Shown: in pieces, positions 17,968-21,159 of the stretch | How the letters are laid out: the number at the start of each line of letters is the position of its first letter | How positions within the stretch are numbered: position 1 is the first letter of the stretch | Assembly (NCBI GenBank): GCA_016210545.1 | Contig: JACQTY010000261.1 | Coordinates: 1-33,517 of the forward strand | Source: Chloroflexota bacterium | GTDB lineage: Bacteria > Chloroflexota > Dehalococcoidia > JACVQG01 | Direction: 5' to 3' | Length of the DNA stretch: 33,517 nucleotides | The notes under the pieces: generated by a model | Databases searched by the model: none | What the model was told of the DNA's origin: nothing | Seen by the model: only the letters and a program-made list of their open reading frames with translations | Translations under genes and position numbers: made by a program

Positions 17968-20364
17968 GTGACAGCTCAGCGTATGGATGCAAAAAGCTTA
18001 GAATTACTTGAGTTTCCTCAGATAAAGAAAATACTTGCCGGATTCACCTCATTTTCGGCCAGTCGCCAACTGGCTCTTGACTTGCAGCCGGTGACGGATT
18101 ATCAGCAGGTCGCCTTGTTGCTTCGCCAATCAGCCGAAGCCAGGAATCTCCTCTGTGTAAAGCCGGGGTTTACTATCGGGGGTGTGCGGGATATCCGGCA
18201 AGAAGTGGGCCTGGCATCTGTGGGAAAGACACTGACGCCTCAAAGTCTGCTTGACATTCAGAACACTCTTGCTGCTACCGGCCAGGTGCGCAATACTCTT
18301 AATGGCTTGTCGGCTCAGGTCCCTCAACTCTGGGGTATCGCCGCTGATCTGGTCGAGTTTGGTGAGATCGTCGAGAATATTGCCCATTGTTTGTCCCCTG
18401 CTGGAGAAGTGCTGGATCGGGCTTCGGCTCGCCTTGGAAATATCCGGCGGCAATTGGCAGAGTTACGCCAGCAACTACAACAAAAGCTGGAAGCTACGAT
18501 GAAGACGCCGCGAGGGCGAGAGATAATACAGGAGCCTTTTATTGTTGAGCGGGAAGGCCGTTTCGTCATCCCGGTAAAGATTGAGTACCGGAGGGAAATG
18601 AAGGGCATAGTCCATGATGTTTCCAATACCGGAGCTACCTTGTATATCGAGCCGCTGGCCACGGTGGACCTGGGTAATAACATTAGGGAATTGATGGCAG
18701 AGGAAAGACGCGAGGTAGACAGGATACTGCTGAGCTTGAGCGACGAGATCGGGGAACACGAAAAGGAAATCTCCACTAACATCCAACGGATAGCCGAACT
18801 GGATCTAGTGCTTGCCAAAGCCCGCTATGCCCACAATACCGGAGCGGTTGAACCAGTCCTGGTAAGGCTGGTTGATGATGAAGAGGCAGCAGTCGCCGAA
18901 ACGCCACGCGTGCTGAAGCTGACCGAAGCGAGGCACCCGTTACTCGGCGTTACCGCAGTCCCGCTTTCAGTGGAGTTGGGACGGGACTTCTCGGTGCTGA
19001 TTATCACCGGGCCGAATACCGGCGGCAAGACGGTAGCTATCAAGACCATCGGCTTGCTCAGCTTGATGACCCAGGCCGGGATACCAATCCCCGCCTCTGA
19101 TGACAGCCAGATGCCCGTCTATGACGGTGTATTCGCCGACATCGGTGATCAGCAAAGCATCGAGCAAACCTTATCCAGCTTTAGCTGGCATATGGGCAAC
19201 GTCCTCCGCATAATCAATCAGGCAACAAAGAAGAGTCTGGTGCTTCTTGACGAGTTAGGCACGAGTACGGACCCTGTAGAGGGTTCCTCTCTGGCTATTG
19301 CCATTCTGCACCATTTCCTGTCGCGGCAGACGATGACCGTAGCCACCACACATTTTTCTGAAGTCAAAGCCTTCGCCCATACCACTGCCGGGATGCAGAA
19401 CGCTTCATTTGAATTTGACCCGATAACACTTAGTCCGACGTATCGCCTGACGGTAGGTACGCCCAGCGGCAGCAACGCCCTGGCCATCGCCTCACGCCTG
19501 GGTTTGCCGCAAGAGATCGTCGCCGAAGCTCAAAGATTGGTGCCAGAAACCAGTAAACAATTGGAAACTATCCTGAGCAGTCTCCGGCGCCAGGAGCAGG
19601 AGATTACGGCTCTCCGGCGCCAACTGGAGAAGGAAAGAGAAGATGCAGAACAACGGAATAGAGAACTGGAAACAGAACGACAGCAGATGAGAGTGGACCT
19701 GCGCAGTATGATTCAGCAGGCCAGAGACGGCGTTGCTTCCGAGGCTGCTGAGCTGCGCCGGCAGATCCGTGAGGCCGAATCGGAGTTGCGCAAGCAAAAA
19801 TCCAGAGAAAGGCTCGACCAGGCTAAGAGAACAATTGCAGCGGTAGCGCAGCAACTGGAGAGGGAGGTTTTGCAGACTGGTGACGAGGCCGACGGCCCGA
19901 CATCCCGTGCAAATACCATTTCCATCGGAGACACAGTCTGGCTTAAAGAGGTTGGCGTAAAAGCAACGGTATTGTCTGTGTCTGAGGAAAGGCAAGAGGT
20001 CGAGGTCCAAGCCGGGCAGATCAGAATCACATTGGGTCTGGAGGGGATTGATAAGGTAACATTTGCGGACGGGGAGGCGGCAGTCATGTACACGCCGCCC
20101 GGCAGGGGAATGACGCTACAGCCTGTTTCCCGCGAACTCGATCTGCGGGGTAAGCGGGCCAACGAGATACAGTCGGTCCTGGACCAGTACCTTAATGACG
20201 CTACGATAGCCAACCTGGCTGAAGTCCGAATTATTCATGGTTTCGGTACCGGGACGGTGCGCCAGGTTGTCAGGGAGTTACTGGCTGCTCATCCACTGGT
20301 GAAGACCTACCGTGCAGGCCAGCGGGGGGAAGGCGGCGATGGTGTTACCGTTGCTCAACTATAG
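17968..20364 (+). CDS. mutS2: Endonuclease/ribosome-associated MutS2 with C-terminal Smr domain
   Basis: 798 aa; Walker A GPNTGGKTVAIKTIG, VLLDELGTSTDPVEGSSLA, KOW-like ISIGDTVWLKEVGVKATVLSV, Smr motifs LDLRGKRANE and HGFGTG. GTG at 17968 or ATG at 17983 as start. Confidence 0.95.
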   Translation: MTAQRMDAKSLELLEFPQIKKILAGFTSFSASRQLALDLQPVTDYQQVALLLRQSAEARNLLCVKPGFTIGGVRDIRQEVGLASVGKTLTPQSLLDIQNTLAATGQVRNTLNGLSAQVPQLWGIAADLVEFGEIVENIAHCLSPAGEVLDRASARLGNIRRQLAELRQQLQQKLEATMKTPRGREIIQEPFIVEREGRFVIPVKIEYRREMKGIVHDVSNTGATLYIEPLATVDLGNNIRELMAEERREVDRILLSLSDEIGEHEKEISTNIQRIAELDLVLAKARYAHNTGAVEPVLVRLVDDEEAAVAETPRVLKLTEARHPLLGVTAVPLSVELGRDFSVLIITGPNTGGKTVAIKTIGLLSLMTQAGIPIPASDDSQMPVYDGVFADIGDQQSIEQTLSSFSWHMGNVLRIINQATKKSLVLLDELGTSTDPVEGSSLAIAILHHFLSRQTMTVATTHFSEVKAFAHTTAGMQNASFEFDPITLSPTYRLTVGTPSGSNALAIASRLGLPQEIVAEAQRLVPETSKQLETILSSLRRQEQEITALRRQLEKEREDAEQRNRELETERQQMRVDLRSMIQQARDGVASEAAELRRQIREAESELRKQKSRERLDQAKRTIAAVAQQLEREVLQTGDEADGPTSRANTISIGDTVWLKEVGVKATVLSVSEERQEVEVQAGQIRITLGLEGIDKVTFADGEAAVMYTPPGRGMTLQPVSRELDLRGKRANEIQSVLDQYLNDATIANLAEVRIIHGFGTGTVRQVVRELLAAHPLVKTYRAGQRGEGGDGVTVAQL

Positions 20365-20385
20365 CTGTCGCATGAACAGAATGCC

Positions 20386-21159
20386 ATGCTCATAGCTCAA
20401 GCTCTCAATGTCGGCCGACGAAAGATGCTGGCTCTTATGGACGAGTTCAAAGAAACTGACTCTGCCAAATCCTTGTATATTCCGGCAGCTTTATCTCCAC
20501 AGCAGATTGGAAAGCTGACAGAAAAAGTTAACCTGGGAAATGCGCTGCCACAGATTGCAGAGCTGGCAGCCCACTCGAAAACGGGGGCAGCCGTTTTCTG
20601 GAGCAGCTTGAAGAAATACATGGTTATACCGCCATTCCCGATCATCGAGCAACGCGTTGACGATAGCTTTGTCGCTGAACCGCTTCGCTCATTGCTTGTT
20701 CACGACTACCGTATCGCCATCGTATTGGTCCGCCTGGGAGCTTTTGCCATCGGTCTGTGCCAGGGAGAAAGTCTGCTTGCCAGCAAGGTTGGCTCCGGAA
20801 ATATTCACAGCCGCCACAGGCAGGGTGGCTCATCGCAGAAGAGATTTCAACGCCACCGGGAAAAACAAATCGAATACTTTTTCACTCGAGTCTGCAGTCA
20901 TGCCCAGGAAATCCTTACAAAAGAGACAGAGCCGATTGACTATATTGTTTATGGAGGCGCATGGACAACCATACTGATGCTCCAAAAGCAATGTTCTTTC
21001 TTACGGTTGTTTGACAGCCGTAACTTGCAGGCGCTGCTGGATATACCAGAGCCGCGTCAACCTGTGCTGGAAGAAGCCATCCAGCGTGTTTGGTCAAGCC
21101 GTGTCTTTGAGTGGCATGAGGATACCGGATGTGACCATGCAGCCCAATTGCCCCATTAG
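20386..21159 (+). CDS. VLRF1-type (eRF1 superfamily) putative peptidyl-tRNA release factor
   Basis: 257 aa; VLVRLGAFAIGLCQGESLLASKVGSGNIHSRHRQGGSSQKRFQRHREKQIEYFFTRVC...DYIVYGGAWTTILMLQKQCSFL...EPRQPVLEEAIQRVWSSRVFEW has the GGSSQ catalytic-loop-like motif and layout of Actinobacteria/Chloroflexi VLRF1 proteins. Confidence 0.8.
   Translation: MLIAQALNVGRRKMLALMDEFKETDSAKSLYIPAALSPQQIGKLTEKVNLGNALPQIAELAAHSKTGAAVFWSSLKKYMVIPPFPIIEQRVDDSFVAEPLRSLLVHDYRIAIVLVRLGAFAIGLCQGESLLASKVGSGNIHSRHRQGGSSQKRFQRHREKQIEYFFTRVCSHAQEILTKETEPIDYIVYGGAWTTILMLQKQCSFLRLFDSRNLQALLDIPEPRQPVLEEAIQRVWSSRVFEWHEDTGCDHAAQLPH

What the first reader, a model, noticed from the sequence alone, without database searches (positions are those of the whole stretch)
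17968..21159. mutS2 paired with a VLRF1-type release factor: candidate bacterial ribosome-rescue operon
Sequence: a full-length MutS2 (ATPase, KOW-like and Smr segments) is followed after 21 nt, same strand, by a 257-aa protein with RHRQGGSSQKRFQRHREKQIEYFF, the GGSSQ-type loop of VLRF1 proteins. Established knowledge: Bacillus MutS2 has been reported to recognise collided ribosomes and split them; eukaryotic Vms1/ANKZF1 (VLRF1 family, eRF1 superfamily) releases nascent chains from peptidyl-tRNA on split large subunits; an Actinobacteria/Chloroflexi VLRF1 family is recognised in domain databases. Inference: the two genes form one pathway in which MutS2 splits the stalled ribosome and VLRF1 then releases the stranded peptidyl-tRNA, so this lineage could use a eukaryote-like release step. 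I do not know of an experimental description of this pairing.
Basis: partly seen in the sequence, partly recalled or inferred. Interest (0 to 1): 0.85.

Follow-up and report, generated by a model that had tools for sequence, protein, structure and literature searches.

The report
MutS2 paired with Vms1-like release factor
In one class of bacteria the gene for MutS2, known to split jammed ribosomes in Bacillus, is repeatedly followed by a gene for a relative of the eukaryotic factor that frees unfinished proteins, and these bacteria lack the usual next protein of the pathway, so the pair is probably an unstudied rescue system that can be tested directly.

Summary
Window 17968-20364 is a full MutS2, and 21 nt downstream lies a 257-aa member of the Pfam acVLRF1 family. 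The pairing is not an accident of one contig: in 198 genomes of the same class (Dehalococcoidia by record titles), 26 of 56 strong acVLRF1 genes lie directly downstream of mutS2 on the same strand, and in a scan with the linked clade 69 of 80 loci do. No third gene travels with them. The class lacks RqcH (0 of 198 genomes), the factor that follows MutS2 in Bacillus. The function, release of nascent chains from MutS2-split 50S subunits, is the best inference but untested.

The supposedly catalytic Q151 is Ala or Ser in 30 of 80 loci, including the nearest relative, while the rest of the loop is equally conserved, so a Q151 mutant may not be decisive. acVLRF1 also occurs without MutS2, and about 85 MutS2 genomes of the class lack it. 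I found no paper on the pairing in the library searched; a 2024 paper says no dedicated RQC termination factor is known in bacteria. New variant of a known kind.

The parts
17968..20364 (+). mutS2, 798 aa; ATPase (MutS_V, Walker A GPNTGGKT), SH3/KOW-like (PF20297) and Smr domains. Start GTG uncertain; an in-frame ATG lies at 17983.
   Evidence: TIGR01069 800 bits over the whole model; PF00488, PF20297, PF01713; sequence
20365..20385 (+). 21-nt gap between the two genes; no terminator-like site in it
   Evidence: in 69 linked relatives the gap has a median of 34 nt, 55 are at most 60 nt and 2 overlap
20386..21159 (+). acVLRF1-family protein, 257 aa, codon-independent release-factor candidate
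   Evidence: PF18859 1.5e-28; AlphaFold2 model pLDDT 90.8, pTM 0.85; Foldseek best hits eRF1/aRF1, then Balon, Pelota, yeast Vms1
20386..20700 (+). residues 1-105: probable reduced eRF1/aRF1 domain 1 without the stretch that holds the NIKS-type stop-codon motif (suggestive)
   Evidence: whole-length profile alignment to aRF1 3agk starts at residue 6 and gaps over its 'ITDNIKLKRTRQ' stretch; N-terminal piece alone gives 3agk as top hit but only E 0.12
20806..20847 (+). residues 141-154, loop HSRHRQGGSSQKRF; H141, R143, G147, G148, S150, R153, F154 identical in all 77 aligned members; Q151 (20836-20838) variable
20710..21105 (+). residues 109-240, RNase H-fold release-factor domain matched by the acVLRF1 model

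Best explanation
mutS2 and this acVLRF1 gene form a two-gene operon for rescue of stalled ribosomes. MutS2 recognises the collided ribosome and splits it (shown for B. subtilis MutS2, inferred here by homology). The VLRF1 protein then enters the A-site side of the 50S subunit, without a codon because it lacks the stop-codon-reading part, and frees the nascent chain from the P-site tRNA (inferred). In this class the step takes place without RqcH and so without RqcH-made alanine tails (absence shown, consequence inferred). The chemistry is probably carried by the conserved R143-GG-S150-R153 loop together with the ribosome, either ester hydrolysis or Vms1/ANKZF1-like cut of the tRNA CCA end. Gln151 is not a fixed requirement.
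For: Profile membership. Conserved same-strand adjacency: 26 of 56 acVLRF1 genes in 198 genomes and 69 of 80 loci, median gap 34 nt, with 5 of the other 11 lying near a contig end. Linked proteins form one clade, SH-aLRT 98; linkage changes only 4 times on the tree. No third gene in more than 3 of 20 linked loci. RqcH 0 of 198 in the class but 115 of 251 in the phylum sample, with no genome holding both RqcH and a strong acVLRF1. Fold: eRF1/aRF1, also Vms1-60S 6r84. In yeast Vms1, R288A and G292A/G293A abolish release whereas Q295L only impairs it (PMC5989216); R143 stands the same four residues before the GG here and both are invariant.
Against: No activity test exists. Gln is missing in 30 of 80 loci. 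acVLRF1 occurs in 9 class genomes without detected mutS2 (some incomplete) and about 85 mutS2 genomes lack it, so neither needs the other strictly. The genome also has Pth and tmRNA, which could do the release. The RqcH/acVLRF1 exclusion is confounded with ancestry: within the rest of the phylum it is 0 of 3, p 0.11. The R143/R288 match rests on spacing, not on an alignment.
Confidence: 0.57

Rival explanations
1. Non-catalytic A-site factor. Like Dom34/Pelota or the hibernation factor Balon, the protein plugs the A-site and helps MutS2 recognise, split or hold ribosomes; the peptide is released by Pth or otherwise.
For: Gln lost repeatedly, at least 7 changes on the tree; Balon and Pelota among the structural matches; Pth present; most baeRF-1 families without Gln are thought inactive (PMC6514570).
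Against: The loop stays as conserved in the Ala/Ser group (mean 0.876) as in the Gln group (0.871) and GG, R143, R153 never change; Dom34 and inactive baeRF families are reported to have poorly conserved loops. Lacks the third (Pelota-like) domain of Pelota and Balon by length.
Confidence: 0.25
2. Chance or convenience partnership. The two genes share an operon for expression reasons in this lineage and work in separate pathways; acVLRF1 does a general job such as clearing peptidyl-tRNA, as in lineages without MutS2.
For: acVLRF1 of Actinobacteriota must work without MutS2 (0 mutS2 in 3,213 genomes, PMC11633108); unlinked acVLRF1 clade in the same class.
Against: Linkage kept across sequences down to about 40% identity while all other neighbours are shuffled; known separate link of MutS2 to 50S-peptidyl-tRNA, the substrate of VLRF1-type proteins.
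Confidence: 0.13
3. DNA-side function: MutS2 acts in recombination control as once proposed and the partner is an unrelated RNA-binding protein.
For: MutS2 carries 'endonuclease MutS2' as family name and older literature treats it as anti-recombinase.
Against: SH3/KOW-like and Smr domains present, the parts that bring B. subtilis MutS2 to collided ribosomes (PMC10897456); partner is a ribosome-A-site fold.
Confidence: 0.05

Closest known systems
acVLRF-1 family (Burroughs and Aravind 2019, PMC6514570; Pfam PF18859)
   Same: Profile membership, GGxSQ loop in the window protein, single RNase H-fold release-factor domain with a short N-terminal part, phylum named in the family
   Different: The paper describes a conserved Gln and gives no MutS2 link; in this clade Gln is Ala/Ser in 38% of loci. 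The N-terminal part looks like a cut-down eRF1 domain 1 rather than an unrelated extension (suggestive).
Eukaryotic Vms1/ANKZF1
   Same: Same superfamily and fold; proposed substrate (peptidyl-tRNA on a split large subunit); R-x3-GG spacing of Vms1 R288-G292
   Different: Much shorter, no zinc finger, ankyrin or VIM; sequence closest to aRF1/eRF1 in PDB, not to Vms1; the relatives of eukaryotic Vms1 proper are the Bacteroidetes bVLRF-1 family
B. subtilis RQC (MutS2-RqcH-RqcP-Pth)
   Same: MutS2 of the same family and domain make-up; Pth present
   Different: No RqcH in the class; a dedicated release-factor-like gene sits in the mutS2 operon
Balon/Rv2629 hibernation factors
   Same: Bacterial aeRF1-superfamily fold that occupies the A-site (structural hit 7e-9)
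   Different: GG-loop with conserved Arg kept here; no third domain; neighbour is mutS2

Membership tests
acVLRF1 (PF18859) | Score over the curated Pfam cut-off | tested here: met
   100 against 27.1 bits
acVLRF1 (NCBIfam NF041024) | Score over the NCBIfam cut-off | tested here: not met
   117 against 125 bits; I therefore file it under the Pfam family, not under the NCBIfam equivalogue
acVLRF1 | GGxSQ loop with conserved Gln (as published) | tested here: inconclusive
   Present in the window protein; among 80 loci 50 GGxSQ, 21 GGSSA, 9 GGSSS; among 121 proteins 96 SSQ, 23 SSA, 2 SSS
acVLRF1 | Stop-codon-binding domain lost | tested here: inconclusive
   NIKS-type stretch absent, but residues 6-105 align with aRF1 domain 1 within the full-length profile match (1.1e-23); alone E 0.12
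Vms1/ANKZF1 (eVLRF-1) | Closest relatives among eVLRF/bVLRF; zinc finger, ankyrin, VIM | tested here: not met
   PDB sequence and fold neighbours are aRF1/eRF1 first; 257 aa leave no room for those domains
Vms1-like activity | Release of peptide from peptidyl-tRNA on 50S/60S | not testable with these tools
   needs biochemistry
MutS2 | TIGR01069 over cut-off, ATPase, SH3/KOW, Smr | tested here: met
MutS2 ribosome splitter | ATP-dependent splitting of stalled disomes | not testable with these tools
   shown for B. subtilis MutS2 only (PMC10897456)
Bacterial RQC of the B. subtilis type | RqcH (NFACT) present | tested here: not met
   PF05833: 0 of 198 class genomes over cut-off, own genome none, while the search rings in B. 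subtilis and 9 other controls
Balon-type hibernation factor | Three-domain aeRF1 with degenerate loop | tested here: not met
   two parts only, loop highly conserved

The most novel reading that the evidence does not exclude
A dedicated bacterial RQC termination factor exists in Dehalococcoidia, encoded with the ribosome splitter MutS2 and working in a short split-and-release pathway without RqcH or alanine tails; and its GG loop works with or without the Gln held to be catalytic in this superfamily.
Probability: 0.33. Interest if true: 0.85.

Novelty: new variant of a known kind. Interest (0 to 1): 0.7.

Why it matters
How bacteria free the nascent chain after ribosome splitting is the least understood step of bacterial RQC; [quoted passage not shown] A gene of the right superfamily in an old operon with the splitter, in a class that lacks RqcH, is a concrete candidate. 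Natural Gln and Ala/Ser forms of the loop also offer a ready test of whether VLRF1-type factors need a catalytic Gln or act by another route, such as cutting the tRNA end, a disputed point for Vms1/ANKZF1.

Tried and rejected
A Gln swap between positions 146 and 151 looked striking (K146-Q151 45, Q146-A/S151 23, K146-A151 6, both Gln 2, N146-Q151 1), but on the tree it is 3 to 0 independent pairs, p 0.25, so I do not claim it. Reading the N-terminal part as a full eRF1 domain 1 was downgraded because the piece alone is not significant. The RqcH/acVLRF1 exclusion in the phylum (p 0.0006) is mostly a class effect and not claimed as independent evidence. The weaker PF18859 matches (under 60 bits, frames of 350 aa or more) are other families of the superfamily and none is mutS2-linked. 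Counting mutS2 in the 20 regions L081-L100 as support would be circular, as they were chosen for linkage; they were used only to show that no third gene is conserved. The extra gene between the two in some relatives (L098, L099) is a weak IS200-like transposase match, so an insertion. The Actinobacterial neighbourhood was not surveyed here; the absence of mutS2 there is taken from PMC11633108.

Full report
What is there. The window holds, on the + strand, a GTG-started ORF 17968-20364 (798 aa) and, 21 nt later, an ATG-started ORF 20386-21159 (257 aa). The first is MutS2: TIGR01069 at 800 bits against a cut-off of 400 over the whole model, with the MutS ATPase, the SH3/KOW-like PF20297 and Smr. 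The second hits Pfam acVLRF1 PF18859 at 1.5e-28 (100 bits, cut-off 27.1), less strongly baeRF_family10 and eRF1 domain 2, and falls just short of the NCBIfam acVLRF1 model (117 against 125 bits). No terminator-like site lies between them.

Is the pairing real. I searched 198 genomes of the window's class with PF18859 and with the mutS2 model. Of 56 strong acVLRF1 genes (65 bits or more), 26 have mutS2 directly upstream on the same strand; none of 15 weaker matches, which are mostly larger proteins of other families, does. A scan of one genome for each of 85,488 species with the linked clade gave 80 loci, all from Chloroflexota MAG or genome records and titled Dehalococcoidia or Dehalococcoidales where a class is named. 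In 69 of them mutS2 lies upstream on the same strand; 5 of the other 11 lie within 800 bases of a contig end. The gap has a median of 34 nt, 55 of 69 are at most 60 nt, and two pairs overlap. No other gene recurs in more than 3 of 20 linked regions. A few relatives carry one extra gene in between, which weakly matches an IS200-like transposase. In the tree the linked proteins form one side of a branch with SH-aLRT 98, away from the unlinked acVLRF1 of the same class, and linkage needs only 4 changes. The operon is therefore probably ancestral in the clade.

What the pathway context says. B. subtilis MutS2 is brought to collided ribosomes by its KOW and Smr domains and splits them with ATP, leaving peptidyl-tRNA on the 50S subunit for RqcH (PMC10897456). 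RqcH is missing from all 198 genomes of this class (0 over cut-off; the weak matches cover only a short stretch of the model in frames of mostly 270-350 aa), while the search finds it in B. subtilis and nine other control genomes. In a sample of 251 genomes of the phylum RqcH is in 115, none of them with a strong acVLRF1; that exclusion largely follows the class boundary and is not independent evidence. The window's own genome (93.8% complete) has Pth (222 bits) and tmRNA (163 bits). A MutS2 without RqcH would leave 50S-bound peptidyl-tRNA without alanine tailing, and a release factor in the same operon fits that gap. This is inference.

How it may work. AlphaFold2 gives a confident model (pLDDT 90.8, pTM 0.85; the GG loop itself is lower, about 63). 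Its best structural matches are eRF1 and aRF1 over the whole length, then Balon, Pelota and yeast Vms1 on the 60S subunit. A profile of the family aligns with aRF1 from residue 6 on, with a gap over the aRF1 stretch that contains the NIKS-type stop-codon motif. The N-terminal part alone still has aRF1 as top hit but without significance (E 0.12), so I hold it as suggestive that the protein has a cut-down domain 1 and reads no codon. There is no room for the third domain through which eRF1 and Pelota meet their GTPase partners.

The glutamine. In the 80 loci the loop reads GGxSQ in 50, GGSSA in 21 and GGSSS in 9; among 121 near homologues 25 lack the Gln. The nearest relative, 77% identical and of the same genus, has Ala. 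On the tree the residue changes at least 7 times. The rest of the loop is as conserved without Gln (mean 0.876, 29 proteins) as with it (0.871, 48 proteins), and H141, R143, G147, G148, S150, R153 and F154 are identical in all 77. So the loop is under constraint for some task in both groups, and the Gln is not an absolute need. In yeast Vms1 the R288A and G292A/G293A mutants are dead while Q295L is only impaired (PMC5989216); R143 stands the same four residues before GG as R288 does, a match by spacing only. Reviews now describe Vms1/ANKZF1 as an endonuclease that cuts the tRNA CCA end, which would fit a loop that does not depend on Gln, but nothing here tests it.

Limits. acVLRF1 is found in nine class genomes without a detected mutS2 (several incomplete), and about 85 of 130 mutS2 genomes of the class have no acVLRF1. 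Actinobacteriota carry acVLRF1 by its family name but have no mutS2 in 3,213 surveyed genomes (PMC11633108). The pair is thus a lineage-specific partnership, and the general biochemical role of acVLRF1 need not depend on MutS2. A non-catalytic A-site role remains the main rival.

Novelty. [quoted passage not shown] The library lacks many subscription papers and all preprints except those in PMC, so an unseen description is possible. Both gene families are known; the operon, the RqcH-free setting and the variable Gln are what is new, hence a new variant of a known kind.

Noticed in passing
window 16982-17407 and 17404-17721 (+): A ribbon-helix-helix antitoxin gene overlapping a PemK/MazF-like toxin gene (PF02452, 5.8e-19) lies directly upstream of mutS2; the same-genus relative L093 has a HEPN/nucleotidyltransferase pair at that place instead, so toxin-antitoxin-like modules differ but recur there.
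   Followed up: partly
window 16736-16810 (+): tRNA-Gly (CCC), upstream of the toxin-antitoxin pair; a possible integration site.
   Followed up: no
L098:5158-5721, L099:5419-5886: Relatives with one extra gene between mutS2 and acVLRF1 that weakly matches IS200-like transposases (below the cut-off).
   Followed up: partly
L078, L079, L080 (unlinked acVLRF1): A separate subgroup with GGRSE or GGRSQ loops, one of several unlinked acVLRF1 types in the same class whose neighbours are not conserved.
   Followed up: partly
acVLRF1 residues 146 and 151 across L126-L205: Gln tends to sit at 146 when 151 is Ala or Ser (KGGSSQ against QGGSSA/S); the window protein has both. Not significant once ancestry is counted.
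   Followed up: yes
window 21324-24348 (-): Xanthine dehydrogenase-type molybdopterin subunit and a 2Fe-2S subunit, convergent with the operon; then an ISL3/UPF0236-like transposase at 24479-25768.
   Followed up: no
198 class genomes: About 85 genomes have MutS2 but neither RqcH nor a strong acVLRF1, so how they release 50S-bound chains is open.
   Followed up: no
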